The notes beneath the pieces were generated by a model, which was not told the DNA's origin, did no database searches, and was given only the letters and a program-made list of their open reading frames with translations. Made by a program: the position numbers and the translations under genes. Of a DNA stretch of 64,000 nt, positions 17,288-34,378 are shown piece by piece. Position 1 is the stretch's first letter, and each line of letters opens with the position of its first letter. The DNA comes from Streptomyces sp. NBC_00239 (GTDB lineage Bacteria > Actinomycetota > Actinomycetes > Streptomycetales > Streptomycetaceae): positions 6,696,001-6,760,000 of the forward strand of contig NZ_CP108095.1 in assembly GCF_036194065.1 (NCBI RefSeq). The letters run 5' to 3'.

Positions 17288-18874
17288 TCAGCTAAGTAGA
17301 TTAGTAAGACGTGGGTCACGCTTGAGGTCCGCCGCCGGCGGATTCGCCCGTGCCCTTCGCCGTAGCCGCAGCAGGGTCGCGAGGCCCGCGAGGGCCGGTG
17401 CGCCCAGCAGAAGCTCCGGCCACGTGCCGAGCCGTGCGGCCAAGGTGTTCCCCTCGGCGAGCGGAAGCCTCTCGACCAGGTAACCACCGCGCCAGGTGCC
17501 CAGCCGGTCGCTGACCCTCCCGTCCGGTGTGACGAGGGCGCTGACACCGCTCGTGGATGCCAGCGCGACCGACCGTCCGTATTCGATCGCACGGATCCGG
17601 GCCATGGCGAGCTGCTGCTCGGATTGGCCGGCCTGCACGCCGCGCTCGTATGTGGCGTTGTTGGTCTGGACGACCAGAAGGTTGGCTCCCGCCAGGACGG
17701 TGTCGCGGACTCGCCCGTCGTAGGCGATCTCGTAGCAGATCACATCGCCGAGCCGCACCGGGCCCGCGATCAAAGGCGCCTGGGAGGACCCGGCGGCGAA
17801 GTCCCGGGGGATGAGCTGCAGCGCGCCGAATCCGCCGAGCAGCGACCGTGCCGGGATGTACTCGCCGAACGGGACGAGCTGGCGTTTGGCGTACGAAGCG
17901 ACCGGTCCCTGCTGAGGCAGCCACAGCTGTCCCGCGTTGTATGACTGGCCGGCCGGCCCGTCCAGGATGGCGCCGATCAGCAGCGGACGGTCCAGCTGCC
18001 GCACGGAATCCGCCACCAGGGCGCCCAGCTCCAGGTCTCGCTGGGGATCGCTGTCCAGGGAGTTCTCGGGCCACAGCACCACGTCGGGCCTGGGAACCTC
18101 ACCTCGGCGGACGGCGTCGGCCAGCTCCTGGGTCTGCCGTGCATGGTTCTGTGCCACCCCGCGGACCCGCGCTTGCTCGGCCAGCGAGCGCTCGCGTTCG
18201 ACATTGCCCTGCACGACGGCCACCACCGCGCTCCGCCCCGACGGCTTCGCGGCAGGGATCAGCAGCGGTGCGACCACCAGTGCGACCACACCGCACGACG
18301 CGACCGCACTCGACCGTCGGTGACCGCCCCGCCAGGACGTCACGCCGTACACCAGCAGCGAACCCAGCAGCGCCGTGACGAAGGAGAGCGCGGCAGCGCC
18401 ACCGACCGAGGCCCACTCGCCCCACGGCGCGTCCGCCTGGCCGAAGGCGAGCCTGCCCCACGGGAAACCACCGAGCGGAGCCCGTCCCCGAAGCGCCTCG
18501 ACCGCGACCCACCAGGCAGCGGCGAACAACGGCCACCCCCGCAGAGAGAGCAGCCGCGGCAGGAGCATCGCGGCGAGGGCCACGAGCAGGGTCTGGACCG
18601 CGGTCAGCGCCAGCCATGGCAGCACGCCGAGATTGGAGAGCCAGACGATCAGCGGACCGAAGAAGGCTGTTCCGAAGACGGCGCCGGCCGCGAATGCCGC
18701 CCGGCAGGACCTGCCCCGGACCGCGACGATCAGTAGCGCCGGCCCGAGCGGTGCGAGGAACCACATGCCTACGGGCGGGAACGAGGCGTAGAGGAGGAGG
18801 CCGCCGAGCGCCGCCGCTGCCCAGGTGCTCACGGGCATGCGAGGCGGTCGTGCATGGCGCTCGCTGCTGCTCAC
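17288..18874 (-). CDS. lnt: Apolipoprotein N-acyltransferase (accessory copy)
   Basis: 528 residues from GTG 18874, chosen because GTGA overlaps the upstream stop. N-terminal membrane domain (about six helices), then the nitrilase-like domain with the catalytic triad: E270 in LWPENSLD, K330 in YAKRQLVPFGEY, C380 in DVICYEIAYD. It N-acylates the diacylglyceryl-Cys of mature lipoproteins on the outer membrane face. A further membrane helix and basic tail follow. The last codons (LTNLLS) are AT-rich and contain the operator upstream of lgt. Confidence 0.93.
   Translation of the reverse strand: MSSSERHARPPRMPVSTWAAAALGGLLLYASFPPVGMWFLAPLGPALLIVAVRGRSCRAAFAAGAVFGTAFFGPLIVWLSNLGVLPWLALTAVQTLLVALAAMLLPRLLSLRGWPLFAAAWWVAVEALRGRAPLGGFPWGRLAFGQADAPWGEWASVGGAAALSFVTALLGSLLVYGVTSWRGGHRRSSAVASCGVVALVVAPLLIPAAKPSGRSAVVAVVQGNVERERSLAEQARVRGVAQNHARQTQELADAVRRGEVPRPDVVLWPENSLDSDPQRDLELGALVADSVRQLDRPLLIGAILDGPAGQSYNAGQLWLPQQGPVASYAKRQLVPFGEYIPARSLLGGFGALQLIPRDFAAGSSQAPLIAGPVRLGDVICYEIAYDGRVRDTVLAGANLLVVQTNNATYERGVQAGQSEQQLAMARIRAIEYGRSVALASTSGVSALVTPDGRVSDRLGTWRGGYLVERLPLAEGNTLAARLGTWPELLLGAPALAGLATLLRLRRRARANPPAADLKRDPRLTNLLS
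17292..17307. promoter_or_regulatory. BlaI-type operator, lgt promoter region
   Basis: CTAAGTAGATTAGTAA, strongly AT-rich against its surroundings, covering the last codons of lnt (LTNLLS) 23 bases before the lgt start. On the coding strand it reads TTACTAATCTACTTAG, matching the 20853 site at 12 of 16 positions. Confidence 0.65.
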
Positions 18875-19326
18875 GAAGGAACGGGGCAGCTGGCAGCCGT
18901 ACGAAGTCGGCGGATCAGCGCGAAGAGCAGGAGGCCGACCGAGGCCACGGCGAGCAGCGGCTGAAGCGGCGCCCAGTACGAGAGCGCACCGGTCACCCCG
19001 ATGGCCAGCACAACCAGCTTGTTGCAGATGGGGCAGCCGACCGCGAACGCCGACAGCAGGCCGGCGCTCAAGGCGCGGGCCGTCGCCGGACGCTCCTTCG
19101 TCTCGGCTTCGGCGGATGACGGCTCGCCGGCGCGGACGTACGTGGCGACGAGCAGTCCCTCGAGGAGGGAGCTCGCCAGCCACACCGGATAGTTCCACCA
19201 CAGCACCGGCGTCATGCGCGTGTAGAACGGCGAAGGCACCACACCGGTGGGGACTCCGATGACGAGGGCGGCGAGCACGGCGACCGCTGCCGCGACGGCC
19301 CATCTACGGGCGGGCCAGCTGCCCAT
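18871..19326 (-). CDS. Membrane protein with CPICN motif, first gene of lnt-lgt operon
   Basis: 151 residues from ATG 19326 with AAGGAG upstream. Four hydrophobic segments; the third begins with GCPICNK, a CXXC pair at the membrane surface like those of thiol redox or metal-handling membrane proteins. Its stop overlaps the lnt start. Exact family not recognised. Because Lnt depends on an active-site Cys, a thiol-redox helper would make sense here, but that is speculation. A BlaI-type dyad lies about 92 bases upstream. Confidence 0.65.
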   Translation of the reverse strand: MGSWPARRWAVAAAVAVLAALVIGVPTGVVPSPFYTRMTPVLWWNYPVWLASSLLEGLLVATYVRAGEPSSAEAETKERPATARALSAGLLSAFAVGCPICNKLVVLAIGVTGALSYWAPLQPLLAVASVGLLLFALIRRLRTAASCPVPS

Positions 19327-19417
19327 GTGTGACTCCTTCAAGGGGGGCCGCCGACCGGTTGAGCTGGACGGGGGAGCCTGCTCATCTTTTCCGGCCGGCG
19401 GCTGACCAGATAGTAAA

Positions 19418-19436
19418 TTACGAAGTTGTTTAGTAA
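19418..19436. promoter_or_regulatory. BlaI-type operator, lnt-lgt operon promoter region
   Basis: TTACGAAGTTGTTTAGTAA: TTAC/GTAA ends with TACGAAG and TTTAGTA half-sites, about 92 bases before the CPICN membrane protein gene. A further ATAGTAAA lies just before it (19410). Confidence 0.6.
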
Positions 19437-19614
19437 CAACCGTGTCGAATGTCACCGGGGTGACGTGGACCGGGGGGTGGCTGACGAGGGCGCGGGTCGG
19501 GGCCGCAATGCTGCTCGACCGGAGCGGGCGACGGCTAAGAGGATCGCCGCCGCAGGCCGTATAGGGCGATGGAGGCGGCGTGTCCGCCTCCGAGGTCGGC
19601 TGCCGACGGGCGTG

Positions 19615-20826
19615 TTACGAGAGAGCGCTGCCCTTCTTCCACGTGGCCCAGTCGACGTTCCAGTCGCCGTAGCCGTTGTTGACGGCCACCGTGTCCACCG
19701 AGTTCACAACCGTCACGGGGTCACCGGGGTTGACCTGGTCGAAGAACCACTTGGCGTCCTCGGTGCTCATGCCGATGCAGCCGTGGCTGGCGTTGACGCG
19801 GCCGAACTTGCCCTCGTTCCATGGGGCCGCGTGCGCGTACGTGCCCGACGGAGTGAGCTGAACGTCCCACTTCACGTCCTCCATGTCGTACGCCTCGGGC
19901 CCGAAGATGCCGACCGTGGCGGAGTTCATCCGGATCGACGGGACCTTGCTCAGGACGACCATGGTGCCGTTCCAGGTCTCGAAGTCCTTCTTGCCGGTGG
20001 AGACGTTCAGTGTCCTGAGTGCCTTGCCGTTCTTGGCGACGGTCATGGCCTTCTTCTCGACGTCGACCGTGCTGGTCACCGCGTCACCGATGCGGAAGTT
20101 CACCTCGCGCTGCTGGGTGCCGTACATGCCACCGCCGGCGTCGACTCCGGCAAGGTCCATGCGCAGGGTGACGTCTGTCCCGGGCTTCCAGTACTCCTTC
20201 GGCCGGTAGTCGACACGGTCCTTCCCATCGCGGTCCTTCATCCAGCTCCACGATCCGTCGACAGCCGGCGACGCGGTGACCGCCAGCTTGCGTTCAACGG
20301 CCGCCTTGTCGTGGATGGGCTTGTTGAAGGTGATCGAGACGGGCATTGCGACGCCCACGGTCGAGCCCTTGTCGACGTTGTACGTGCCGACGAAGGTATT
20401 CGCAGCCGCTTGCGTGGTGAAGGAAGCGGTCTTGGTCAGCTTGGCCCCGTCGGTACCCGCGCCCTGTGCTGTCACCGTGTACTCGGCGCCGGGAGCAAAT
20501 GTGGTCGAGGAAGTCCAGACGGACTTGTCCTGGGACAAGGTGCCCGTGACCGCGCCCTGGCCGGGTGAGGTCACCTCCACGGACGTCAGGGAGCCCCCTT
20601 CGGCCTTGACGGTGATCTTCTGTGACACGGGGACCGGGGCTTCGCCGGAGCCGGTGTCCACGACTATCGCGGAAGGGCCGCTGTTCTTGGCGTCCTCGAC
20701 GGCAGTCGTGCTGGAGCCGCTCTTGTTCTGTCCGGCCGCGCTGCACCCGGCCAGGGCGAGACCGACGGCCGCGGTGAGCGCGAGCGTTCGTACGCCCCTA
20801 CGGCCCCTTGGCGGACTCTGCTGCAT
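19615..20826 (-). CDS. L,D-transpeptidase lipoprotein (YkuD)
   Basis: 403 residues. Lipoprotein signal with lipobox LALAGC (Cys 28), a linker, two Ig-like domains (about 50-250), then the YkuD catalytic domain with H332 and the SHGC motif at 347-350 (catalytic Cys 350). These enzymes make 3-3 peptidoglycan cross-links outside the cell and are insensitive to most beta-lactams except carbapenems. Its lipobox makes it a likely client of the neighbouring Lgt/Lnt. A BlaI-type dyad lies 27 bases before the start codon. Confidence 0.93.
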   Translation of the reverse strand: MQQSPPRGRRGVRTLALTAAVGLALAGCSAAGQNKSGSSTTAVEDAKNSGPSAIVVDTGSGEAPVPVSQKITVKAEGGSLTSVEVTSPGQGAVTGTLSQDKSVWTSSTTFAPGAEYTVTAQGAGTDGAKLTKTASFTTQAAANTFVGTYNVDKGSTVGVAMPVSITFNKPIHDKAAVERKLAVTASPAVDGSWSWMKDRDGKDRVDYRPKEYWKPGTDVTLRMDLAGVDAGGGMYGTQQREVNFRIGDAVTSTVDVEKKAMTVAKNGKALRTLNVSTGKKDFETWNGTMVVLSKVPSIRMNSATVGIFGPEAYDMEDVKWDVQLTPSGTYAHAAPWNEGKFGRVNASHGCIGMSTEDAKWFFDQVNPGDPVTVVNSVDTVAVNNGYGDWNVDWATWKKGSALS

Positions 20827-20852
20827 GACGTCTTGTCTCCATTCCTAATAAG

Positions 20853-20868
20853 CTAAGTGTCTTAGTAG
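20853..20868. promoter_or_regulatory. BlaI-type operator, L,D-transpeptidase promoter
   Basis: CTAAGTGTCTTAGTAG, 27 bases upstream of the L,D-transpeptidase start, in a position to block transcription or initiation. Nearly the same as the 17292 site. Confidence 0.7.
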
Positions 20869-20961
20869 ATGCCTGCCGACGCGACCTGGTTCCCGGTTTC
20901 CGGGAGTGGCCGGACAGGCGTACGCCGCGGCCGCTTCGGGGGCTGGCGCCCCCTCGGTCGG

Positions 20962-21720
20962 TCAGTGAGCGTGACCGTCGTCCGCCTCGGCTGCCCCGCC
21001 CCGGCTCGGCGCAGCGGGCTCCTTCGGGGCCGTGGCCCCTCCGGGAGATGCGGGGGATTCGCTACCTATGCCGCGGTCAGCAGGGTCTTCGGCGCCACCG
21101 CCGTGACTGTGGCCGCCTCCGGACGTCTCGGCGGCCATCCCGTCGGCAATCACGTTCAGACCGAAGTAAGCACCTGCCGCGATGAGCAATACGGCAAGCC
21201 CCATGGGGCCGAAGATCCGGCGCCAGGAGGCGTCCGCGTCCTTGAGGACGAAGGCCACGAAGGAGACCGCTATGCCCAGTGGGACGAGTACGGCACCTCG
21301 GGCGGGGAAGTCGTCGAAGTGCTGCAGGCCGCCGCTGAGCATGCCGATGCCGAACGACAGCAGGAGCGAGGCGCCGATCACCATGAGTGCTCGCGGCAAT
21401 GCGGGCCGGTCGCTGGCGAGCAGGAATTCGTTGACCAATGTGGCGAGCAAGAAGACGAAGACACCGATGACGCCCACGACCGTGTACCGGGCCGGGTCCA
21501 GCGGGTGATGGACGACAGCCCCGCTGATGAGACCGGCGCCGACGAAGTACAGCACGTACCCGATGTAGCGGCCGGCCAGGGGAGGAGTGCGGCGAGCGCG
21601 ATGCGACCGGGCCCGCTGCCGCGCGGCGCCACGGCCTCCGGAAGCGGGCTGAGGCGCGAGGCGCGGAGTGGGGTGGTCGGTGAGGAGCGACAAGACGAGG
21701 CCTTTCGTGATCTGAGGCAT
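20962..21720 (-). CDS. Five-helix membrane protein with His-rich tail (copy A)
   Basis: 252 residues from ATG 21720 (a TTG at 21780 would add an unlikely leader). After a basic N-terminus come five membrane helices (from RYIGYVLYFVGAGLISGAVV to about residue 195) and a Gly/His-rich tail (GGGHSHGGGAED, ending EADDGHAH). A paralogue with the same layout is at 38302-38964. The His tails suggest metal binding on one membrane face. Family name not recognised. Confidence 0.7.
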   Translation of the reverse strand: MPQITKGLVLSLLTDHPTPRLAPQPASGGRGAARQRARSHRARRTPPLAGRYIGYVLYFVGAGLISGAVVHHPLDPARYTVVGVIGVFVFLLATLVNEFLLASDRPALPRALMVIGASLLLSFGIGMLSGGLQHFDDFPARGAVLVPLGIAVSFVAFVLKDADASWRRIFGPMGLAVLLIAAGAYFGLNVIADGMAAETSGGGHSHGGGAEDPADRGIGSESPASPGGATAPKEPAAPSRGGAAEADDGHAH

Positions 21721-21897
21721 GGGCAAGTGCCCCGCCAGCCCGGACGGGGCGGCGTAGGCGCGAGCCGGTACGAGGAGCAAGGGAATCCGCCGACGGAGCC
21801 GCTGCTAGAGCGCGCAGCGAGCGAACGTCTCAGGGGGCCATGGAAGGCCGACCGGACATGGCGGGGAAGGGTGAAGGCAGGGAAGGCTGTGAGCGGG

Positions 21898-22308
21898 CTA
21901 AACGCGCAGGATCGCTGGCGCGCCACTCGGGCCGCCGGGCTGCACTGCCACGGTGGAGCCTGCGAGAGAGCTCGTCGCCTGGTGATTCGGGAGAGTTGCT
22001 CCGAGCGGCGACACGGCCGGTGCGGACACATCGAAGCCGCTGGTCGGCTGCCCAGCCGCGCAGGCCTCAACGGTGTGTGGAGACTCGTGGCTGCCGTCGT
22101 GGCATTCGTCGGCGGTCGACCAGCCCGTAGCACTGGTGGGGACGGTGGCGACGACGCCTGAGGAGCGATGCGCGGCTGCGCTTCCGCTGTCCACGCCGTG
22201 CGTGTACAGCAGCCCGAGAAGCAGCGCTCCGAGCCACAGCAGACGGGACAGCTGCGGCACCCGGGAGCGGGTGGCCGGCAGGGCTGCGACCGTCGGTTTC
22301 GTGACCAC
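21898..22308 (-). CDS. DUF6153-like small exported protein
   Basis: 136 residues from GTG 22308. Basic N-terminus, one hydrophobic helix ending LLLGLLYTHGVDSG, a His/Ser-rich exposed part (DECHDGSHESPHTVEAC), and a short hydrophobic ending (APAILRV). The same design (THGV after the helix and a short branched-chain ending) occurs at 33843-34262 and, more distantly, at 28105-28524. Function unknown; its location among copper genes suggests metal handling. Confidence 0.6.
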   Translation of the reverse strand: MVTKPTVAALPATRSRVPQLSRLLWLGALLLGLLYTHGVDSGSAAAHRSSGVVATVPTSATGWSTADECHDGSHESPHTVEACAAGQPTSGFDVSAPAVSPLGATLPNHQATSSLAGSTVAVQPGGPSGAPAILRV

Positions 22309-22455
22309 GTCGTGATGATAGCCAACCCGGAAGTGGCGCTGGCATCGGGGCCCGGTTCTTGTCCCGTCGCGCGCCCGCGGAAGGCGGCGGCTGGTGGAGG
22401 ACGGCGTAGCTGTGCGCCATTGGGGGCCAGCGGGGTTGCGTCGTCAAGACGTGGC

Positions 22456-22488
22456 GGAGGCCGCTCCTCGATGATCGAGGAGCGGCCT
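22456..22488 (-). terminator. Terminator hairpin of DUF4396 gene
   Basis: GAGGCCGCTCCTCG pairs perfectly with CGAGGAGCGGCCTC over an ATGAT loop. It lies 26 bases after the DUF4396 stop. Confidence 0.75.
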
Positions 22489-22513
22489 CAGGATCCGGCT
22501 GGCGGCGAGGGCG

Positions 22514-23077
22514 TCAGTGGTACGCGTGGACGACGGCGTGGCCCTTGCCGCGGCCGATCATCCACTTGTTCACGGGGGTGGTGATCAGGAAGGCGACGGC
22601 GAAACCGCCCAAGAGCGCGGTCCAGAACAGTGCGTCGGTCAGGTGGGCGTCCATGGCGCCGGGGGTCAGGGCGATGATGCCGTTGTCGACGAGTTCCATC
22701 ACCGCGATGGAGACGGTGTCGGCGGCGAGCGCGACCTTGAGGGCGGTCTTGAAGTCCAGCCCGGCCTTGCGCACTGCCAACAGGGTGAAGGAGTAGCCGA
22801 ACACGAACGCGAGCGTGATCGCCAGGACCATGGTGGGCGCGTTGCCCCAGGCCAGGGCGGTGCCTATGACCATGCCAAGGATCTCACCGATGGCGCACCC
22901 GGTCAGGCAGTGCAGCGTCGCCTTGGCGGCCGCTCCCCAGGTCACCGTTCCCATGGGGTGGCCGCCATGACCCCCGTGGGAGTGGTGCGCGGCGTGGTCG
23001 TGCTCGCCAGCGTGGGCCTGATGTGCGGAGTGGTCGTGAGCGGCGGCGTGATGTGCGCTGTGATCCATATCCTTCAT
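22514..23077 (-). CDS. DUF4396 membrane protein, CsoR-box controlled
   Basis: 187 residues from ATG 23077. A very His-rich cytoplasmic N-terminus (DHSAHHAAAHDHSAHQ, then EHDHAAHHSHGGHGGH), followed by about five helices of the DUF4396 domain (HCLTGCAIGEILGMVIG, ending TTPVNKWMIGRGKG). DUF4396 is common in actinobacterial copper loci; its action is unknown. A CsoR-type box lies 53 bases upstream and a strong hairpin terminator follows the stop. A broken second copy is at 39857-40253. Confidence 0.88.
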   Translation of the reverse strand: MKDMDHSAHHAAAHDHSAHQAHAGEHDHAAHHSHGGHGGHPMGTVTWGAAAKATLHCLTGCAIGEILGMVIGTALAWGNAPTMVLAITLAFVFGYSFTLLAVRKAGLDFKTALKVALAADTVSIAVMELVDNGIIALTPGAMDAHLTDALFWTALLGGFAVAFLITTPVNKWMIGRGKGHAVVHAYH

Positions 23078-23129
23078 CCCCAATTCGCGTCCAGCGTGGC
23101 CGACTTCTCTCGGCCCCACACAGAAAACT

Positions 23130-23147
23130 TATACCCCAGGGGGGTAT
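23130..23147. promoter_or_regulatory. CsoR-type box, DUF4396 promoter
   Basis: TATACCCCAGGGGGGTAT matches the Cu(I)-sensing CsoR operator pattern ATACCCC-N-GGGGTAT. It lies 53 bases before the DUF4396 start. Confidence 0.85.
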
Positions 23148-23305
23148 GTGTCCAGAGTCGCCGGAGGAACGAAGACCGGTTGGGGGTAGCCCTGTTCGGC
23201 CCCGAACCACTCGGTCGGTGACGTGGTCACCCATGGGGGAGGGCAGGAACTGCTGATCCCGGTGATCTAGGTGGTCCGCGGCGTTGGCCATCGTCTCTGA
23301 GTCCA

Positions 23306-23369
23306 CTGCCTCCGGACAGGGCGGGGCCCGCCGGGTTTGCCCGGCGGGCCCCGCCCTGTCCGGAGGCAG
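23306..23369 (-). terminator. Thirty-base-pair terminator hairpin of MFS gene
   Basis: The arm beginning CTGCCTCCGGACAGG at 23306 pairs without mismatch to the arm ending CCTGTCCGGAGGCAG at 23369; 30 base pairs around a four-base loop (TTTG). It starts 36 bases after the MFS stop. Confidence 0.8.
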
Positions 23370-23404
23370 GCAGTGCGTGAAGTGAGGCGGTGGCCCGGGC
23401 GCAG

Positions 23405-24862: not shown

Positions 24863-24885
24863 GACCGCTCCTCGAAGCGACGGCG

Positions 24886-24903: not shown

Positions 24904-24920
24904 CTCGATGGCGGGAACGT

Positions 24921-26705: not shown

Positions 26706-27614
26706 TCAGAGACCGGGCGGGCAGGCGACCAGCAGCGGCAGCAGAGGCACCACAGCGGCCACGGCGGCCACGGAACCCCAGAGCGCCGGATGGGCGCCAT
26801 CGCGCCGTCCCAGAATGCGCTGCATACGGATAAGAGCGGTGTTCCCGCCCGCGCCGAACGCACCCTCCGGGGCGCGGCCCGCAGCCATTTCGTACATCGC
26901 GGTCGCGAGCACGTCGTGCTCATGGCTCCGCAGCGCTCGGTCGTCCGCGATCATCTCCAGCAGGATCGCCGTCTGCTCCTTGGCGTGGCGGGCCAGTGGC
27001 ACCCACCGGAAGACGGTGGCGAAGGCCTCTGCCACGGCGAGCACCAAGTGGTGGCGGCCCGCGACGTGGGCGCGCTCGTGCTCGAGGACCGCGTCGAGCT
27101 GTTCGTCGGAGAGCAGCCGCACGGCCGCATCGCTGACCACGATCCGTGAGCGGCGGCCTGGCAGACAGTATGCTGCCGGCGTTCTGTGGGCCAGGACAGT
27201 GGCACGCAGGCGGGCGGAGTGGGTCCCCACCTTGTCCAATGCGTCACGGTGCCGGGCTCGCGCACGCCCGGCGCGGGTCATGTGGAAGACGAAGCTCGCG
27301 ACCAAGGCCAGCACCACGGCGCTCGGCAAGGCCACGGCCAGCTGGTCGGCGGTCGTCGGATCTGGGGCAGCGGCGCCGCTGCCGATTCCGCAGGTGTGCA
27401 GCAGGCCCACGAGGCCCGCGTGCAGGTGTTCGGTCGGCGTGGCGAGGTGGTACGCCGCGAGCGCGGCGGAGACGGAGAACGAGACGGCCAGTGCGTGCCA
27501 TGCGGCCACTGCCAGGGCGGGAGCCCGATGCGGCCAGGCGCTGCGCAGCATCAGCCGGGGGGCGAGGAAGCCGACAGCCGCCGTGTAGCCGACCAGAGCG
27601 GGCGCCGCGTTCAT
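26706..27614 (-). CDS. M56 (BlaR1/MecR1-type) membrane metallopeptidase
   Basis: 302 residues with about four membrane helices and the zinc-protease motif HERAH at 179-183, preceded by EQLDAVLEH as in BlaR1. It ends soon after a final membrane helix, so there is no penicillin-binding sensor domain. M56 proteins of this type are thought to cleave their partner repressor when stimulated. ATG overlaps the blaI stop as ATGA, so the pair is made together. The stimulus cannot be read from the sequence. Confidence 0.9.
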   Translation of the reverse strand: MNAAPALVGYTAAVGFLAPRLMLRSAWPHRAPALAVAAWHALAVSFSVSAALAAYHLATPTEHLHAGLVGLLHTCGIGSGAAAPDPTTADQLAVALPSAVVLALVASFVFHMTRAGRARARHRDALDKVGTHSARLRATVLAHRTPAAYCLPGRRSRIVVSDAAVRLLSDEQLDAVLEHERAHVAGRHHLVLAVAEAFATVFRWVPLARHAKEQTAILLEMIADDRALRSHEHDVLATAMYEMAAGRAPEGAFGAGGNTALIRMQRILGRRDGAHPALWGSVAAVAAVVPLLPLLVACPPGL

Positions 27615-27979
27615 GGCTTCGGCCGTCGTCCCACGTTACGCAGCGCTGTGCGCAGCGCTGCGACCTCGTCGGCGGACATTTTCTCGACGAACTGGACCAG
27701 AGCGGCCGGCCGGTCCTCGCTGGCCCCCAGAGCGTCCTCCATCAAGAGGGCCGAGTACGCCTCTCGGCTGCGCACCGGCGTGTACAGCCAGGCCCGCCCC
27801 TCCTTGCCGCGCAGGAGCCAGCCCTTGTGGAACAGGATGTTGGTCACGGTCATCACCGTCGTGTAGGCGATGGTCCGCTGCTCGTTTATGTCGTCGACGA
27901 TCTCGCGCACCGTGGCGGGGCGGTTCCATCTCCAGAAGCGGTCCATGATCTCCGCCTCAAGTTCCCCCAGCCGACGCAT
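27611..27979 (-). CDS. blaI: BlaI/MecI/CopY-family repressor
   Basis: 122 residues from ATG 27979 (AAAGGA upstream), the usual family length. Winged-helix N-terminus (LGELEAEIMDRFWRWNRPAT, then TTVMTVTNILFHKGWL) and a C-terminal dimerisation and cleavage region (SADEVAALRTALRNV). The family represses promoters by binding short dyads and is inactivated by proteolysis through an M56 partner. A dyad (CTACATAGTAG) 33 bases upstream implies autoregulation, and related sites precede five other transcription units in this window. Confidence 0.93.
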   Translation of the reverse strand: MRRLGELEAEIMDRFWRWNRPATVREIVDDINEQRTIAYTTVMTVTNILFHKGWLLRGKEGRAWLYTPVRSREAYSALLMEDALGASEDRPAALVQFVEKMSADEVAALRTALRNVGRRPKP

Positions 27980-28011
27980 GGGCCGAATCCTTTCGCCAAT
28001 GTTGTACGCAA

Positions 28012-28022
28012 CTACATAGTAG
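28012..28022. promoter_or_regulatory. BlaI-type operator, blaI promoter
   Basis: CTACATAGTAG, a perfect five-base-arm dyad 33 bases upstream of the blaI start; flanked by TTGTACGCAA. Suggests autoregulation. Confidence 0.7.
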
Positions 28023-28104
28023 ACCGCGCGAATGAGCACGGACCGGCCCCTCCTACCTGTTCGGACGCGTTCGGCATGCCGTGGGTGGGTGCATTGTGCT
28101 TACG

Positions 28105-28524
28105 ATGGCGCCGATGTCACGCAATGAGAAGCCCGCGAAGCCGCAACCACTGTTGCGGCTCAGCGGGCTGCTCGTCCTCGGCCTCCTCATAGGGCTGCTC
28201 GGGATGCACGGCCTGGGGTTTGCCCCGGCCGCGGCACAGGAGAGCACGCATGGGCGCAGTGCGGAGATCGGGCGCGCGGCAGCTGTCTTGGCCGAGTCGG
28301 ATGAATGCGGCCACGACTGCCACGGACAGCACGAGCCTGCGGATCATGCCGATCCGACGTGTGCGTCCGGCGCCGTGGCGGGGCCTCTGGTGTTTCCCGC
28401 CCTCGTCCCCACAGTGATCGGGCATCCCCTGCCCGCAGAGGGGCAGATCACCGCCCTCTCCAGCGGCCCTGACGGGGGACGAGCCCCTCCTTCTCTCTCG
28501 GAACTGCAGCTCCTGCGGATATAG
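28105..28524 (+). CDS. DUF6153 family small exported protein
   Basis: About 139 residues; ATG 28105 or 28114 (or GTG 28081) could start it, and no strong ribosome site decides. One helix (GLLVLGLLIGLLGMHGLG), a His-rich segment (ECGHDCHGQHEPADHADPTC), then a Pro/Gly-rich part ending LSELQLLRI. Divergent from blaI. A DUF305 lipoprotein follows on the same strand, as at 7.0-8.1 kb. Metal-binding function is inferred from His content and neighbours. Confidence 0.75.
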   Translation: MAPMSRNEKPAKPQPLLRLSGLLVLGLLIGLLGMHGLGFAPAAAQESTHGRSAEIGRAAAVLAESDECGHDCHGQHEPADHADPTCASGAVAGPLVFPALVPTVIGHPLPAEGQITALSSGPDGGRAPPSLSELQLLRI

Positions 28525-28613
28525 GACAGGCCGCGCGCCGCCGGAAGGTGCCCGCATGGGGTCGGCGTCGCCACTCACCATGCCCTGCCACAGATCAAAC
28601 CGAGGAGTTTCGC

Positions 28614-29246
28614 ATGAACGCGCACCGCACGCTGATCCGTCGTACCGCCCTTGTCGCCGGCACCGGAGTGGCCGCCCTGGTCCTGGCCGCTTGTGGGGGT
28701 GACAGCGAGCACGACATGGGGGCGATGGGGGAGTCCAGGTCCACGCCGTCCGCCAGCGCTTCCATCACGGCTGGTGACCACAATGCGGCTGACGTCTCCT
28801 TCGCCAAGGACATGATCCAGCACCACCGCCAGGCGGTGGAGATGGCCGAGCTGGCCGAGACCCGCGCCGCGTCCGCGGAGACCAAGGACCTGGCGACGAA
28901 GATCAAGGGAGCCCAGGACCCGGAGATCAAGACCATGTCCGGCTGGCTCACCTCATGGGGTGAGGAAGTCCCCGCTGACATGTCCGGCCAGGGTCACGAC
29001 ATGTCATCCGGCATGCCCGGCATGATGAGCATGGCCGACATGGACAAGCTGAAGGCGGCCAAGGGCGCCGAGTTCGACAAGATGTTCGCCGAGATGATGA
29101 TCAAGCATCACGAGGGCGCCATCGAAATGGCCAAGACCGAGAAGGCGCAGGGCAAGTACGACCCTGCCAAGAAGCTGGCCGACGAGGTGATCAAGGCCCA
29201 GACGGCCGAGATCGAGCAGATGAACAAGATGCTCGGCAAGAGCTGA
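28614..29246 (+). CDS. DUF305 lipoprotein, copper-associated (second copy)
   Basis: 210 residues from ATG 28614 with GAGGAG upstream. Lipobox LVLAACG; the DUF305 His motifs are FAKDMIQHHRQAV and MMIKHHEGAIEMA; the middle is Met-rich (DMSSGMPGMMSMADMD). Closely similar to the copy at 7429-8079, including the ending QMNKMLGKS. Exported and lipid-anchored. An intrinsic terminator follows 11 bases after the stop. Confidence 0.9.
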   Translation: MNAHRTLIRRTALVAGTGVAALVLAACGGDSEHDMGAMGESRSTPSASASITAGDHNAADVSFAKDMIQHHRQAVEMAELAETRAASAETKDLATKIKGAQDPEIKTMSGWLTSWGEEVPADMSGQGHDMSSGMPGMMSMADMDKLKAAKGAEFDKMFAEMMIKHHEGAIEMAKTEKAQGKYDPAKKLADEVIKAQTAEIEQMNKMLGKS

Positions 29247-29257
29247 GTCGAGGCGGC

Positions 29258-29301
29258 GGGGCGGCCGACGGAGCGATCCGTCGGCCGCCCCGCGGTTTTT
29301 T
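29258..29301 (+). terminator. Intrinsic terminator between convergent DUF305 and DUF1015 genes
   Basis: GGGGCGGCCGACGGA pairs perfectly with TCCGTCGGCCGCCCC over GCGA, followed by GCGGTTTTTT. The clearest U-tract terminator in the window; on the other strand it can end the DUF1015 transcript. Confidence 0.88.
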
Positions 29302-29311
29302 GAGCCGGGCT

Positions 29312-30529
29312 CTACGGGGCTGCGACGACTCGCATGGCCAGGCCGGCAGCCGGCTTCGGGCCGAAGGAGGTTGATTTGCGGGGGAGGAGCACGCCCTTCG
29401 CTGCGAGTCCCCTCACCGTGTCCTCGGTGATAGCGGGGAGCAGGACCGCGGTCCCGCCGCCTGGCGCAGCTACGGAGGTCAATGCCTGGGCGGCGTCGTG
29501 TACATGACGCACTGCACCGGGGAGGTCGGGCACCGACCAGGCGCGAGCGAGAAGGAGAAGGTCCGCGATGGCAGCGGGCTGCTCATGCCATTCGTACGGC
29601 CGCCCGTCCAGCGCCTCGCGCAGCGCTTCCGGCTCAGGGGCCGAGATGCTCCAGGCTCGGCCGCCGCCGGCGACGACCAGCTCATCCGGGTCGGGCAGTC
29701 GTGGCCCGGAGGGCAGTGGACGTACCCGTGCCACGTCTGCGGCTGCCGCGGCCGCCTTGTCGGGCTCCAGGCCGGGAATGACGCGATGGATCGCCTTCAA
29801 CTGCAGGGGAGTTGCCGCGGAGTCGACCAGGAGCGCCAGACTGCGGTCCCAGGTACTGCTCCCTGTCTGCTCCTGCCCGAGCCGCAGGCAGGCCGCATGG
29901 CGGTGGTGGCCGTCGGCTATGAGGGCCTGGCACCCTGTGAGCCCCGCAGCGAGCATTGATTGCTCGGCGGGATCGGTGCAGCTCCACAGGGTGTGAGTGA
30001 TCGCCCCCAGACGGGCGGACGCGGTGGGGCGGCGGCTGGTGATGTCCTCGATGAGGCGGGTCCCCGCGCCATCGGTAGAGCGGTAGGCGAGGAGGAGCGG
30101 CTCCAGTTGGGCGCGCAGTCCGGCCATGTGCGCGGCGCGTTGCCCGACGACATGAGGCTGGACATCCTCGTGGGGCAGAACTGCTCCGGCGCTCTCGTCG
30201 GACAGCAGCAGTTCACCGATCAGTCCACGCTGCAAGAGCTGCTGTCCGCGACGCTGTTGGTACACATAGAGGGCGGACTGGGAATCGCGGCGCAGTACGC
30301 CTCGGTTCAGCCATCGGTCCAACTGTCCTGCGGCGGCATGTACATCGTGGGCATAGAGCAGCCGGGCGATGTGATGAGGCTGGGCCCGCGCGTGGGCGGG
30401 AATCATCTCGTCGTACGGCGGGCTGATCACGGTGGACAGGTCGCCGGCACGCGCAGGGTCGTACCGCACGGCCTGGAACGGCCTGAGCTGCAACGCGGTG
30501 TGGGCCTGCCGAAGTGGGGCGGGTATCAA
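29312..30529 (-). CDS. DUF1015 (SerK-like) protein
   Basis: 405 residues with the DUF1015 landmarks: RPFQAVRYDPARAGDLSTVI and SPPYDEM near the N-terminus and LIADGHHRHAACLRL in the middle. Characterised DUF1015-type proteins include SerK/SbnI-like kinases that phosphorylate free serine to O-phosphoserine. It is the last gene after a PLP-dependent synthase and an MFS gene, a pairing that fits O-phosphoserine as the shared intermediate (inference). Shares a terminator with the convergent DUF305 gene. Confidence 0.8.
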   Translation of the reverse strand: MIPAPLRQAHTALQLRPFQAVRYDPARAGDLSTVISPPYDEMIPAHARAQPHHIARLLYAHDVHAAAGQLDRWLNRGVLRRDSQSALYVYQQRRGQQLLQRGLIGELLLSDESAGAVLPHEDVQPHVVGQRAAHMAGLRAQLEPLLLAYRSTDGAGTRLIEDITSRRPTASARLGAITHTLWSCTDPAEQSMLAAGLTGCQALIADGHHRHAACLRLGQEQTGSSTWDRSLALLVDSAATPLQLKAIHRVIPGLEPDKAAAAAADVARVRPLPSGPRLPDPDELVVAGGGRAWSISAPEPEALREALDGRPYEWHEQPAAIADLLLLARAWSVPDLPGAVRHVHDAAQALTSVAAPGGGTAVLLPAITEDTVRGLAAKGVLLPRKSTSFGPKPAAGLAMRVVAAP

Positions 30530-30612
30530 GGTTCACTCCCGATGCGGGGGCACGGCAGAGCAGAGGGGCGGGCGATGGCACGTGCCCGCCCCCCTGGTGC
30601 TTGGCCGTTCGG

Positions 30613-31917
30613 TCAGACGGTCACGGCTTCGGGCCGTGTCTCAGGCACGGGTGGTGCGAGGCGGCCGGTGCGGTGCAGTCCGTAGACGGCGGCGGTGCAC
30701 GCGAGGCCGAGGGCGAAGAGCGCCAGCCACGGGAGCGCGGACACCCCGGCGTTCCGGGCCGCGTCCAGGGCCGCGCCGGTGAGCAGATTGCCGAGCGCGA
30801 TACCGACACCGCAGATGGTGTTGTACAACCCGTAGTGGGTGGCTACCAGGCGGTCGCCGGAGAGACGGACGATGGTGTCCATCTCGAACGGATAGGCGAT
30901 CATCGTGCCCAGGGCCAGCAGTAGGGCGGACAACGCCGGCGGCACGGCGGCCAGTAGCCACAGTCCTATCCCGCCGTCCGGAACAGGCACTGCCGTGGCA
31001 GCCAGCAGGGGCAGGAAACCCACCCCCATCGTCAGCAGCCCCCAGGCGAGGGCATGACCCGGCTCCACACGGGCCTTGCACCAGGCGGTGACCTTCGTCT
31101 GGAAAAGGACCGTGCTCAGCCCTGAGACGGCGAACAGCACCGCTACCGCAGCCGTGCCGAACTGGCCTTCGCCGCCCAGGCGCCGCACTTCCAACGGGAG
31201 TGCCAGGTAGACCTGGAAGGTCATGACGTACGAGCCGATCATGGCCACGGAGAAGAGAAGGAACGGGCGGTTGGCCAGGATGCCGCGCCACTGGGTCAGC
31301 ACGCTCTCGCGCTGACCATCCTTCTCGTCCTTTGCATCGTTGCCGCGGCGGGCAGGCAGCGCCCGGATCTGCACGAGGCTCAGCACGGCGAAGATTCCGG
31401 CGGCCACCAGACAGGTGACGCGGAAGTCGACGCCCGTCAGGATCATGCCCACCAGCGGGCCCAGCAGGATGCCGGCCTGGTAGAAGACGTTGAACAGCGC
31501 GAAGGCTTCGACCCGACGCTCGCCCGCGTCCGCGGCCAGATACGCGCGGCTGGCCGGGTTGAACAGGGCCCCGGCCAAGCCGGTCGCGGCGGACGCGGCG
31601 ATCAGAGCCGGTACGGAGTCCACGAGCCCGAGCGTCGCGAAGCCGATGACGCGCAGCACCATCCCCGCGATGATCAGCGGCTTGTAACCGAGGCGGTCGG
31701 CCAGCGTTCCGCCGACCAGGAACATGCCCTGCTGGCTGAAGTTGCGTACGCCGAGAATCAGGCCGACGAGCCAGCCCGCCAGTCCCAGCGGGCCGGCCAG
31801 GTGCGTGGCCAGGTAGGGCATCAGCATGTAGAAGCCGAGGTTGATGGTGAACTGATTCACCATCAGCAGCTGAACGCTGCTCTCGTACGAACGGAACTGT
31901 GTGATGGTGCCCTTCAT
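30613..31917 (-). CDS. MFS transporter, MdtH-like 12-helix type
   Basis: 434 residues, about 12 helices. N-terminal half has GFYMLMPYLATHL and the A-motif GGTLADRLGYKPLI. Start ATG 31917 overlaps the stop of the PLP synthase gene (ATGA), implying one functional unit. Likely exports, or imports, the product of the neighbouring enzymes. Substrate unknown. Confidence 0.85.
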   Translation of the reverse strand: MKGTITQFRSYESSVQLLMVNQFTINLGFYMLMPYLATHLAGPLGLAGWLVGLILGVRNFSQQGMFLVGGTLADRLGYKPLIIAGMVLRVIGFATLGLVDSVPALIAASAATGLAGALFNPASRAYLAADAGERRVEAFALFNVFYQAGILLGPLVGMILTGVDFRVTCLVAAGIFAVLSLVQIRALPARRGNDAKDEKDGQRESVLTQWRGILANRPFLLFSVAMIGSYVMTFQVYLALPLEVRRLGGEGQFGTAAVAVLFAVSGLSTVLFQTKVTAWCKARVEPGHALAWGLLTMGVGFLPLLAATAVPVPDGGIGLWLLAAVPPALSALLLALGTMIAYPFEMDTIVRLSGDRLVATHYGLYNTICGVGIALGNLLTGAALDAARNAGVSALPWLALFALGLACTAAVYGLHRTGRLAPPVPETRPEAVTV

Positions 31918-33074
31918 CAGGCCGCGTCCTCCGCGTCGGCCTCGTTGAGCGGCTCGGCCTCGTCGGCGTTCTCCTCGACGTCGGCGTCCCGCGCCTCGTC
32001 GTCGAGGGTGAGCGGGTCGACCACGGTGGTGCATCGGGTCCAGCGGGTGACCTCCTTCTCGTCCAGGCGGCCGATCACCTCGGGTTCGAACGCCGGCGGC
32101 GACTCGAGGAGGCCGTGGGCCGCGCAGTAGTCGTCGTCGTAGACGGTGCTGAGATAGCGCTGAGGACCGTCGGGGAAGATCGCCGCGATCCGGGTGTCCT
32201 TGGGCAGGGCGCGCGACAGCCAGCCCGCGACCATGGCGACGGCGCCGACGCTCCATCCACCGGTGGCGTAGTGGGAGGAGGCCAGTTGGCGGCAGGTCCA
32301 CACCGCTTCGGCCGGGGAGACCCAGTGCACCTCGGAGAAGTTGTCGTAGGCGACGTTGCGGGGGTAGATGCTCGATCCGAGCCCGCGCATCAGGCGGGGC
32401 CGGGCGGGCTGGCCGAAGATGGTGGAGCCGATGGTGTCGACTCCCACGAGCGTCAGGTCGGGGTAGAGCTGCCGCAGTACCCGGGAGACGCCTGCGGAGT
32501 GTCCGCCGGTGCCCACGCTGCACACCAGGACGTCGATGTGCCCCAGCTCGGTGGCCAGTTCGAGTGCCAGCGGGGTGTAGGCGGTGGTGTTGTCGGGGTT
32601 GTTGTACTGGTCGGGGCACCACGAGTCCGGGTGCTGCCCCATGAGCTGGGCCACGCGGTCGCGGCGGGCCTGCTGCCAGCCGCCTGTGGGGTGCGGTTCG
32701 GAGACGACGTTGACCTGGGTTCCGTAGGCGGTCAGCAGCCGGGTCATGGATGCCTCAAGGCCCGGGTCGGTAACCAGGGTGACGGGGTGTCCGTAGACCA
32801 TGCCGGCCAGGGCCAGGCCGAGGCCGAGGGTGCCGCTGGTGGATTCGATGATCCGGGCCCCAGGCTTGAGGTCACCCCGGGCGCGGGCGCGTTCGACCAT
32901 GTGCAGGCCGGGGCGGTCCTTGATGCCGCCGGGGTTGAAGCCCTCCAGCTTCGCCCAGAAGCCGCGTCCCTCCGGGGCGAGAGGCTCTGAGATCCGAAGC
33001 AGTGGGGTGTTACCCACGAGCCCGGACAGGGCGGAGCGGGTGGGGGGTGTCGCGTCCGTGGTCGAGGAATGCAT
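31917..33074 (-). CDS. PLP-dependent cysteine synthase-family enzyme
   Basis: 385 residues of fold-type II. PLP lysine K52 in [11 protein letters not shown], substrate loop [11 protein letters not shown], phosphate-binding [10 protein letters not shown]. The family makes beta-substituted alanines from O-acetyl- or O-phosphoserine (cysteine, cystathionine, or siderophore precursors as with SbnA). A long acidic C-terminal tail ([17 protein letters not shown]) is unusual. First gene of a three-gene operon with an MFS and a DUF1015 kinase-like gene. The exact nucleophile cannot be told from sequence. Confidence 0.9.
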
Positions 33075-33206
33075 TGTTTCGCTCTCATTCGGTGATGCGC
33101 GTCAAGTACTCGCTCAGGTCGCATGCCGCCGGCGCAGGGCAGGGGGTATCCCGGCTCTGAAGATCGGCGTGCGGCAGCCGGTTCGTACGGCTGCATGGCG
33201 AGTGGT

Positions 33207-33635
33207 CTAGATGCGCCACCGGCAGATACTTGTCAGCGTGGAGCGGCCGCTCTGGGCTATCGGCGTTCTGTCGGCGCCAGGCGGTGCAGCTGGGGGCTCT
33301 GCCATCGCCGGGGCACTGGCAATGGCGAGGGAGAGCACTGTTGCCGCGCCTGCTGTGGACTGGGATCCGCCCTGAGGCTGGGGAGCCAGGCCGGGGGAGA
33401 CGCATTCAGAACTGTGCCCGTGCTCAGGGTGCCCGTCCGCAGGCACGTCGACCGGGTGCTGGTGCGTGAGTTCACTTGCTGATGCCGTCGCCACAGCGTG
33501 CCCGTGGTCGTCACTGGCCAGGAAGGGGGAGCAGTGCACCGCTGCCAGCAGCAGGGCACTCAGGATGCCTGCGAGTAGACGGCCTGGCCAGGGCGCGGCC
33601 CGGCGGAGAGGTCGTACGAGCGGGTGGCGTGGCAC
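33207..33635 (-). CDS. His-rich small exported protein
   Basis: 142 residues. Start at GTG 33635, which has an excellent GGAGG site five bases upstream; frames further upstream lack one. Basic N-terminus, hydrophobic helix (LLAGILSALLLAAVHCSPF), His/Asp-rich part (DDHGHAVAT, HQHPVDVPADGHPEHGH), a second hydrophobic segment, and a short ending ICRWRI. Layout like the DUF6153-type proteins nearby. Probably metal binding outside the membrane; function unknown. Confidence 0.6.
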   Translation of the reverse strand: MPRHPLVRPLRRAAPWPGRLLAGILSALLLAAVHCSPFLASDDHGHAVATASASELTHQHPVDVPADGHPEHGHSSECVSPGLAPQPQGGSQSTAGAATVLSLAIASAPAMAEPPAAPPGADRTPIAQSGRSTLTSICRWRI

Positions 33636-33788
33636 TTTTCCTCCGTGCGGCAGTCGCTTCGGAGGCCCATGTGGGCAGAGGAAGCGGCACGAGGTCGACG
33701 GTGTGGACAGCGAGGGTTGGGCCCGTCCGCCGCCCGCTATGAGGGCGTGGGGCATCAAGGCGCCAAAATCTGGACGAGCCAGAACATA

Positions 33789-33803
33789 GCGCCTGTAAGG
33801 CGC
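33789..33803. promoter_or_regulatory. Candidate operator dyad upstream of His-rich gene
   Basis: GCGCCTGTAAGGCGC is a perfect five-base-arm dyad in an AT-richer patch about 155 bases before the start at 33635. A related AGGCGCCAAAAT element is 30-40 bases away. No U-tract follows, so it is more likely a protein site than a terminator. Confidence 0.3.
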
Positions 33804-33842
33804 AAATATGGTGATACGGGCGTCGCCAGTGTTGTTGAGTGT

Positions 33843-34262
33843 CTACACCTGGAGCACGGGCGTTGTTCTGAAATGTGTCAGCGAAGAGCCTGCCGGCCCT
33901 GCCTCGCCGCGGGTGGGCGGGCTCGGCAGGGTCCCGAACGTCCATCGCGCCCCGGTCAGCGGAGACAGTCGAGGTACGTCAACAGTGGCTCCCTGTCGAG
34001 GCAGCCTGGGTGTGCACTCATGCGCGGAGTGGGCAGCTCCGTGGCGGTCCGTGTGGTCCACCCGGGCGGCTGTACTGCCGCCCGAGGGAGTCGCAGAGAA
34101 AGCGGATGCGCTGGGGGCTCCGTGGCCCTCGGCGCCGCCTTCCGTCTGCACGCCGTGCGTGTAAAAGAGGCCCAGCAGCAGCATGGCCAGCCCAAGCAGG
34201 CGCAGCAGACCCATCGATGAGTGGGTCGGCGGCACGCGATAGAGCGACCGGGCTGTAACCAT
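33843..34262 (-). CDS. DUF6153-like small exported protein
   Basis: 139 residues from ATG 34262. Hydrophobic helix LLRLLGLAMLLLGLFYTHGV, His-containing middle (ARVDHTDRHGAAHSAHEC), and ending TTPVLQV; the same plan as the 21898-22308 gene. A near-perfect BlaI-type dyad lies about 103 bases upstream. Function unknown; probably envelope or metal related. Confidence 0.6.
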   Translation of the reverse strand: MVTARSLYRVPPTHSSMGLLRLLGLAMLLLGLFYTHGVQTEGGAEGHGAPSASAFSATPSGGSTAARVDHTDRHGAAHSAHECTPRLPRQGATVDVPRLSPLTGARWTFGTLPSPPTRGEAGPAGSSLTHFRTTPVLQV

Positions 34263-34364
34263 GCCGTGATCTTAGCGGCTCTCTCGCGAAATGATGGACA
34301 TCGATTTGGACAATGCGTGAACAGATCGTGTGTGGATTGGCCTGATTGGGATCTGTCTACTATT

Positions 34365-34378
34365 CAACTAAGTAGTTG
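34365..34378. promoter_or_regulatory. BlaI-type operator, His-rich protein promoter
   Basis: CAACTAAGTAGTTG, a dyad with CTAAGTAG core in a strongly AT-rich patch (CTACTATT before, AAAATTT after), about 103 bases upstream of the 33843-34262 gene. Confidence 0.6.

What the first reader, a model, noticed from the sequence alone, without database searches (positions are those of the whole stretch)
17288..34378. Six-site BlaI/M56 regulon joining lipoprotein maturation, L,D-transpeptidase and His-rich proteins
AT-rich dyads built from TACTAA/CTTAGTA or TACGAAG half-sites occur at 17292, 19418, 20853, 26638, 28012 and 34365, each upstream of a start codon on the minus strand: lgt, the CPICN-protein/lnt operon, the L,D-transpeptidase, the BNR lipoprotein, blaI-M56 itself, and a His-rich protein. 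Such motifs stand out in this GC-rich DNA. The only BlaI-family gene lies in the middle. The M56 partner has no penicillin-binding sensor domain, so the signal may be different from that of BlaR1. The combination has the look of a dedicated envelope-repair regulon.
Basis: partly seen in the sequence, partly recalled or inferred. Interest (0 to 1): 0.85.

Follow-up and report, generated by a model that had tools for sequence, protein, structure and literature searches.

The report
BlaI-controlled backup envelope enzymes, copper island
A Streptomyces copper-resistance island carries spare copies of enzymes that build and repair the cell envelope, and they share a short DNA switch that very probably belongs to a BlaI-type repressor and its membrane protease, a pair best known from penicillin resistance.

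Summary
All six places fit one 17-bp dyad, TACTAA-N5-TTAGTA. Five are strong; the one at blaI is weak and overlaps a conserved -10-like element. A matrix trained only on other genomes ranks the five as the window's best distinct sites. In this 9.3-Mb genome the dyad (<=2 mismatches) occurs 9 times, 7 within 48 kb. Beyond the window it precedes NlpC/P60, M23 and transglycosylase genes.

The link to BlaI is comparative. In 199 Streptomyces genomes, 34 of 64 sites (<=1 mismatch) lie within 15 kb of a listed BlaI gene. The CPICN gene preceding lnt has the operator in 6 of 7 copies within 10 kb of blaI-M56 and 0 of 16 others. The lgt, lnt and L,D-transpeptidase paralogues elsewhere in this genome lack it.

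Best reading: BlaI represses spare envelope enzymes; M56 relieves repression. The signal is unproven; the copper setting and conserved, presumably extracytoplasmic His/Cys residues of M56 suggest copper or copper-damaged envelope. A second BlaI probably shares the operator at core wall-hydrolase genes. I have no binding or expression data.

The parts
17289..17307 (-). operator before lgt (inside 3' end of lnt)
   Evidence: TTACTAATCTACTTAGCTG; score 24.0 with independent matrix; same place in L042 and before lgt in L152
19418..19436 (-). operator before CPICN-protein/lnt genes, with overlapping second dyad at 19410
   Evidence: score 27.2; present in 6 of 7 CPICN copies linked to BlaI-M56, 0 of 16 others
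20850..20868 (-). operator before L,D-transpeptidase, with overlapping dyad at 20842
   Evidence: score 20.6 and 17.0; also before ldt in L042, L107, L113
26635..26653 (-). operator before BNR lipoprotein, just after M56
   Evidence: score 22.4; kept in the near relative L028; in L029 and L108 the same position precedes an NlpC/P60 gene; BNR genes near BlaI in 11 relatives have none
28004..28022 (-). weak operator/promoter element before blaI-M56; lies in the divergent gap to DUF6153-DUF305
   Evidence: score 11.6; CTACTATG part conserved as -10-like element
34357..34375 (-). operator before DUF6153-like/PALP/MFS gene group, overlapping dyads at 34360 and 34365
   Evidence: score 22.7; sites also before the same gene group in L028, L042, L043, L044
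27611..27979 (-). blaI (BlaI1), Penicillinase_R repressor, no Cys
   Evidence: PF03965 E 5.5e-25; closest solved chain 2g9w
26706..27614 (-). M56/M48-type membrane metalloprotease, HExxH at residues 179-183, loop motif H63-x-H65...H73-x-C75, C298
16406..17269 (-). lgt, accessory copy (1 of 2)
   Evidence: PF01790; 2 copies in genome
17288..18838 (-). lnt, accessory copy (1 of 3)
   Evidence: TIGR00546 over cut-off; 3 LNT_N in genome
18871..19326 (-). small, probably membrane, protein with CPICN motif
   Evidence: no Pfam or NCBIfam family
19615..20826 (-). L,D-transpeptidase (Big_10 + YkuD), 1 of 7 homologues
   Evidence: PF17964, PF03734
25694..26554 (-). BNR-repeat lipoprotein, F510_1955 family
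   Evidence: NF045728 over cut-off
29312..34262 (-). DUF6153-like, His-rich, PALP (cysteine-synthase-like), MFS and DUF1015 genes behind operator 34357
28081..29246 (+). DUF6153 and DUF305 genes divergent from blaI
   Evidence: PF19650, PF03713

Best explanation
A BlaI/M56 switch controls a set of accessory envelope enzymes in a copper island. BlaI1 dimers bind the 17-bp dyads and repress an extra lgt, a CPICN membrane protein with lnt, an L,D-transpeptidase, a BNR lipoprotein, a DUF6153/cysteine-synthase-like/MFS gene group and, outside the window, NlpC/P60 and M23 peptidases. When the envelope is poisoned, the membrane protease M56 is activated, BlaI is inactivated (by analogy with BlaR1-BlaI, recalled, by cleavage at its FVE segment), and the spare enzymes are made. 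The likeliest signal is excess copper, or copper-damaged envelope, sensed through the extracytoplasmic loop of M56. Shown here: the shared dyad, its placement, its co-occurrence with BlaI, and the accessory nature of lgt, lnt and ldt. Inferred: binding, repression, proteolysis, copper signal.
For: Independent matrix ranks five of six sites on top of the window. 7 of 9 genome sites at <=2 mismatches lie in 48 kb. 26 of 41 genomes with a BlaI1-type gene (E < 1e-39) have a site against 21 of 158 without; 34 of 64 sites lie within 15 kb of a listed BlaI, 31 of them a BlaI1-type, 2 a BlaI2 and 1 another BlaI. 31 of 40 BlaI1-centred regions L107-L146 hold a site above 16.5; background 0.2 per Mb. 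14 of 20 neighbouring NlpC genes carry it. CPICN genes carry it in 6 of 7 copies within 10 kb of blaI-M56 (scores 12.9 to 28.0, two of them 12.9) and 0 of 16 others (best 8.1); Fisher p = 7e-5, copies not independent. In L151, L152, L234 and L236 the CPICN gene lies directly before blaI-M56. The other lgt, two lnt and six ldt homologues of this genome have no site in about 1.5 kb on either side (best 5.8). M56 is adjacent to BlaI in 37 of 40 dereplicated loci and keeps H65, C75 and C298 in 26 of 26 close homologues. Copper genes surround it: a cupredoxin, a cupredoxin-fused and an HMA-type P-ATPase and two of the genome's seven DUF305 genes in the window, another HMA P-ATPase and a multicopper oxidase just upstream. 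Copper is reported to block Lgt action on the +1 Cys and to inhibit L,D-transpeptidases (PMC6593411, passages).
Against: The blaI site is weak, so autoregulation is doubtful in this strain. In relatives near BlaI1, P-ATPase (0 of 11), DUF305 (0 of 17), multicopper oxidase (0 of 5) and also BNR (0 of 11) genes have no operator above 13 within 300 bp; of 20 NlpC genes 6 lack it. One CPICN copy, L153, lies 5.4 kb from a BlaI-M56 pair, as close as the L042 copy, and has no operator. The loop motif in M56 is not associated with metal-type neighbours (p = 1). 15 of 41 BlaI1 genomes have no site at <=1 mismatch, and 21 genomes without BlaI1 have one, including G008, in which no BlaI was found at E<=1e-10. 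The reversed control pattern is not rarer at <=2 mismatches and is common. No binding or expression data.
Confidence: 0.66

Rival explanations
1. The operator belongs mainly to the second, near-universal BlaI (BlaI2, about 0.7 kb from an lsr2 gene), or is shared by both; the window BlaI1-M56 is only one input.
For: In 19 of 19 regions that hold both BlaI2 and the M23b peptidase gene, a dyad scoring above 9 lies within about 350 bp upstream of M23b (start codons partly extrapolated, scores 9.1 to 19.8); in the 3 regions where no M23b was found there is none. Genomes without BlaI1 have sites before SLT, M23 and CAP genes. BlaI2 is 55% identical to BlaI1, and 195 of 199 genomes have some BlaI at E<=1e-10. 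No further M56 besides BlaI1's partner and an HtpX-like protein was detected, and lsr2 is confirmed by Pfam.
Against: The CPICN gene carries the operator only where BlaI-M56 is linked, although BlaI2 is nearly everywhere. Core sites tend to have TACTAG half-sites, accessory ones TACTAA.
Confidence: 0.35
2. The signal is cell-wall damage (beta-lactam or muropeptides), not copper.
For: Many targets are peptidoglycan enzymes: NlpC/P60, M23, SLT, L,D-transpeptidase. A peptidoglycan fragment is reported to trigger beta-lactam resistance in B. licheniformis (PMC3305447, title and start of abstract). M. tuberculosis BlaI acts on blaC and a division gene (PMC12565901, passages).
Against: No penicillin-binding domain found on M56; lgt and lnt are not wall enzymes; the setting is rich in copper genes.
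Confidence: 0.35
3. The dyads are promoter elements or sites of an unrelated regulator that happens to be linked.
For: The blaI site overlaps a -10-like element kept in relatives; G008 has a site but no detected BlaI.
Against: The sites have no fixed distance to start codons (19 to 94 bp), are palindromic, and sit near BlaI genes in many contexts.
Confidence: 0.08

Closest known systems
BlaI (Rv1846c) with M56 protein Rv1845c of Mycobacterium tuberculosis
   Same: Closest solved relative of BlaI1 is chain 2g9w (E 3.4e-23; named only 'conserved hypothetical protein' there), which I recall to be Rv1846c; also a BlaI with an M56 partner without a penicillin-binding domain (recalled)
   Different: Reported targets there are blaC, sigC, ATP synthase genes and ftsQ (PMC12565901 and PMC8265638, passages); here accessory envelope enzymes. 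A Williamsia M56 (one sequence) lacks the His/Cys set. Its operator could not be compared
BlaI-BlaR1 / MecI-MecR1 of Staphylococcus aureus
   Same: Repressor family (MecI and BlaI chains matched), M56 protease fold (best fold match BlaR1, E 0.007), FVE segment aligned to MecI
   Different: No sensor domain found; dyad of TACTAA-N5-TTAGTA type; no beta-lactamase gene noticed behind a site
CopY-controlled copper operons; copper-induced lit2-lgt2 element of Listeria and Enterococcus
   Same: A second lgt among copper genes, there on a mobile element and induced by copper (PMC8275575, passages)
   Different: BlaI1 has no Cys, so no CopY metal hook (recalled feature), and scores 27 against a CopY cut-off of 122; no Lit was seen (not searched for); adds lnt, L,D-transpeptidase and peptidoglycan hydrolases
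RicR copper regulon of M. tuberculosis (multicopper oxidase, LpqS, CysK2, permease)
   Same: Similar gene set: small membrane protein, cysteine-synthase-like protein and MFS permease in one group (PMC7924339, passages); orthology not tested
   Different: RicR is of another regulator family (recalled); here the group has a BlaI-type operator

Membership tests
BlaI/MecI repressors | Penicillinase_R domain | tested here: met
   PF03965, 88.4 bits, cut-off 22.6
BlaI/MecI repressors | Palindromic operator in front of target genes, near the regulator | tested here: met
BlaI/MecI repressors | Operator in own promoter | tested here: inconclusive
   score 11.6; overlaps a -10-like element
BlaI/MecI repressors | Direct DNA binding and repression | not testable with these tools
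   needs gel shift, DAP-seq, deletion
BlaR1-type M56 proteases | Zinc protease motif HExxH between membrane helices | tested here: met
   H179-E180-H183 invariant; helices in the model
BlaR1-type M56 proteases | Pfam Peptidase_M56 over gathering score | tested here: inconclusive
   29.0 bits against cut-off 31; M48 39.6 over its cut-off of 20.3; best fold match BlaR1, E 0.007, TM about 0.34
BlaR1-type M56 proteases | Penicillin-binding sensor domain | tested here: not met
   302 aa, no such Pfam domain
CopY copper repressors | C-terminal Cys metal hook / CopY_TcrY equivalog score | tested here: not met
   no Cys in the protein (translation); 27.2 bits against 121.95
Copper-linked lipoprotein-modification cassettes (lit2/lgt2 type) | Second lgt beside copper genes | tested here: met
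Copper-linked lipoprotein-modification cassettes (lit2/lgt2 type) | Lit transacylase gene | not tested
   no search was made for it
Copper-linked lipoprotein-modification cassettes (lit2/lgt2 type) | Induction by copper | not testable with these tools
   needs RNA-seq or reporter

The most novel reading that the evidence does not exclude
M56 is a copper receptor: a site made by H63, H65, H73 and C75 of its extracytoplasmic loop and C298 at the end of the last membrane helix replaces the penicillin-binding sensor of BlaR1. Copper binding activates the protease, BlaI is cleaved, and copper-vulnerable envelope enzymes (Lgt, Lnt, L,D-transpeptidase) are replaced from spare genes.
Probability: 0.3. 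Interest if true: 0.82.

Novelty: new variant of a known kind. Interest (0 to 1): 0.64.

Why it matters
What BlaI/M56 pairs without a penicillin sensor sense and control is, as far as I know, little understood. Here an operator, a target list and candidate sensing residues come together, so the question becomes directly testable. It also links copper toxicity at the envelope (blocked lipoprotein maturation, inhibited L,D-transpeptidases) to a gene set that would replace those very enzymes, in parallel to the copper-induced lgt2/lit2 element of Listeria and Enterococcus, and it suggests that a BlaI near lsr2 governs core wall hydrolases in many Streptomyces.

Tried and rejected
Chance: rejected by the independent matrix and shuffles and by placement, although the number of matches alone does not exceed the reversed-pattern control (9 against 19; at <=1 mismatch 4 against 0 in this genome, but control hits are common in the 199 genomes; 139 against 104 for the looser pattern). 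CopY membership: rejected. Strong blaI autoregulation: not upheld. Association of the M56 loop motif with metal-type neighbours: tested, none (21/9 against 6/3, p = 1). BlaI2 autoregulation: no dyad above 9 lies near BlaI2 in the 22 regions. Fold search for M56: only weak matches, best BlaR1, E 0.007; model confidence below 50 at residues 62-67 and 76-84, and no coordinates were in the box, so clustering of His/Cys could not be measured. A profile search of M56 against solved sequences gave only Ste24p and HtpX at E near 0.1. A protein search with the DUF6153-like protein found two relatives and no name of use.

Papers: in the listings of ten searches I saw no title or abstract start on a BlaI regulon in Streptomyces or on BlaI with lgt, lnt and copper. 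Several lists were cut (20 of 24, 30 of 281, 12 of 1325, 15 of 43, 12 of 28), the term 'blai' probably also matched author names in calls without whole-word matching, and the library lacks most subscription papers. Sala et al. 2009, the M. tuberculosis BlaI regulon paper, is not held, so its operator could not be compared.

Distances used the BlaI places that I listed, not every BlaI2. The 18 loci that trained the matrix were chosen by me from the near-BlaI sites. Regions L107, L113, L132 and L136 were shifted to take in a site. The gene starts come from a simple caller of mine, and several gene names there are best hits to my own reference set.
Full report
What is there. The window lies at 6,696,001-6,760,000 of contig C1 of a 9.3-Mb genome (GC 0.70); its relatives by BlaI are Streptomyces. 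Aligning the six places by eye gives one 17-bp dyad, TAC(T/G)A(A/T)-N5-(A/T)T(A/C)GTA. The sites lie 19 to 94 bp upstream of the start codons of lgt, a CPICN membrane-protein gene followed by lnt, a YkuD L,D-transpeptidase, a BNR lipoprotein, blaI and a DUF6153-like gene (families; the last has no Pfam match of its own). Several sites are overlapping dyads, mostly offset by 8 bp.

More than chance. A matrix trained on 17 distinct sites from other genomes ranks five of the six as the five best distinct sites of the window: 27.2, 24.0, 22.7, 22.4 and 20.6. One hundred shuffled windows gave 6 hits above 13 in total, maximum 19.6. The blaI site scores 11.6. It overlaps a CTACTATG/CTACGATG-like element seen by eye before blaI in nearly all of 40 loci and probably a -10 box, while a second half TGCGTA/TCCGTA is seen in 12 of them. 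So five sites are firm and the autoregulatory one is not.

Genome-wide. TACTAA-N5-TTAGTA with up to 2 mismatches occurs 9 times; 7 of the 9 lie between 6,681,994 and 6,730,374. The reversed control pattern occurs 19 times, so abundance says nothing; position does. (The BNR and blaI sites have 3 mismatches to this stricter pattern and are not among the 9.) Outside the window the sites precede an NlpC/P60 gene and an M23 peptidase gene (L016), an SLT-type transglycosylase gene (L017) and a second M23 gene, M23b (L022). One site (L016:5993) lies near a GNAT gene and is unassigned.

Link to BlaI. Of 199 Streptomyces genomes, 41 have a BlaI close to the window's (E < 1e-39); 26 of these 41 and 21 of the other 158 have a site at <=1 mismatch (Fisher p = 4e-10, genomes taken as independent). 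Of 64 sites, 34 lie within 15 kb of a listed BlaI gene: 31 near a BlaI1-type, 2 near BlaI2, 1 near another BlaI. In 40 BlaI1-centred regions (L107-L146, some related, four shifted to take in a site), 31 hold a site above 16.5, against 0.2 per Mb in simulated sequence. Fourteen of 20 neighbouring NlpC genes have one within 300 bp upstream; BNR genes 0 of 11. The cleanest comparison is the CPICN gene: 23 copies were examined, the 22 found in 199 genomes plus L042. Seven lie within 10 kb of a BlaI-M56 pair (80 bp to 8.3 kb); six of these have the operator (scores 28.0, 23.7, 21.5, 19.9, 12.9, 12.9), one (L153, 5.4 kb away) has not. The 16 others have none (best 8.1). In the same genome the second lgt, two further lnt and six further L,D-transpeptidase homologues have no site in about 1.5 kb of flank (best 5.8).

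Who binds. The genome has two BlaI genes. Only two M56-like matches were detected: BlaI1's partner and an HtpX/M48 protein in the window. Around BlaI2, which lies near an lsr2 gene, a related dyad, often with TACTAG half-sites, stands before M23b in 19 of 19 regions that hold M23b, and none above 9 is found in the 3 regions without a detected M23b (the 22 regions include this genome, and two that were first fetched because they had a site). Sites before SLT and CAP-domain genes also occur in genomes without BlaI1. The simplest view is that BlaI2 governs core wall hydrolases and that BlaI1-M56 added an accessory set with nearly the same operator. Cross-talk is likely and cannot be settled by sequence. 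G008 has a site but no detected BlaI, which speaks against a strict link.

M56 and the signal. M56 has 302 residues, HExxH and no penicillin-binding domain in Pfam. The model has two N-terminal helices, a short low-confidence helix at 64-74, a long helix, the protease part and a last helix ending at 297. By analogy with BlaR1 (recalled topology) residues 59-85 and the C-terminus face outward. There E-H-L-H...H-x-C-G and C298 are kept: H63 33 of 39, H65 35 of 39, C75 35 of 39, C298 39 of 39, and 25, 26, 26 and 26 of 26 in close homologues. One Williamsia M56 has none of them. M56 proteins of L132, L141 and L143 have lost most of the loop residues; in L132 sites stand before GNAT and glycosyltransferase genes. 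A test for association of the motif with metal-type neighbours was negative. A metal-sensing loop is therefore a hypothesis.

Why copper. The window holds a cupredoxin, a cupredoxin-fused P-ATPase cut by the window's edge, an HMA-type P-ATPase and two of the genome's seven DUF305 genes; another HMA P-ATPase and a multicopper oxidase lie just upstream in L016. DUF305 lies within 10 kb of BlaI1 in 18 of 40 dereplicated loci. The DUF6153/PALP/MFS group behind site 34357 resembles the copper-controlled lpqS-cysK2-permease set of M. tuberculosis (PMC7924339, passages). Copper modifies the +1 Cys so that Lgt cannot act, and inhibits L,D-transpeptidases (PMC6593411, passages). A copper-induced second lgt with lit2 is known from Listeria and Enterococcus (PMC8275575, passages). 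Spare lgt, lnt and ldt in a copper island fit a backup role. Against this, P-ATPase and oxidase genes near BlaI1 in relatives carry no operator, so BlaI1 would control envelope upkeep rather than copper export.

Verdict. A real operator set, very probably of BlaI type, joins accessory envelope enzymes. Binding, repression, proteolysis and signal are inferred. It is a new variant of the BlaI/M56 kind.

Noticed in passing
window 47903-56556: DnaB N-terminal-domain protein and TraG/T4SS coupling protein: conjugation-type genes adjoin the copper island.
   Followed up: no
window 3562-5542: PspA/IM30 and HtpX-like M48 protease genes close together, another envelope-stress module, without a BlaI-type site above 13 in the independent scan.
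   Followed up: partly
window 21898, 28081, 33843, 39051 and L016 7944: Several small DUF6153 or DUF6153-like membrane proteins in one island; three (21898, 28081, 39051) pass the Pfam cut-off.
   Followed up: no
L159, L160, L094: CAP-domain secreted proteins in three other Streptomyces genomes stand behind dyads with 0, 0 and 1 mismatches; one of these genomes (G008) has no BlaI detected at E<=1e-10.
   Followed up: partly
L132, L136, L137, L138: In a BlaI1 clade whose M56 (seen in L132, the representative) lacks most of the His/Cys loop residues, sites precede GNAT-like and GT4 glycosyltransferase genes, perhaps mshA (Pfam run on L132 only).
   Followed up: partly
L112:5270: Operator in the gap between a response-regulator gene and a divergent MMPL gene.
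   Followed up: no
L167:12072-12527: For the second BlaI (BlaI2) no M56 of its own was detected in this genome, so how it is relieved is open.
   Followed up: partly
window 26635 against L029:11327, L108:11326: The operator just after M56 is kept while the gene behind it changes (BNR here, NlpC/P60 in relatives).
   Followed up: partly
window 3-1334: P-type ATPase with a fused cupredoxin domain, cut by the window's edge.
   Followed up: no
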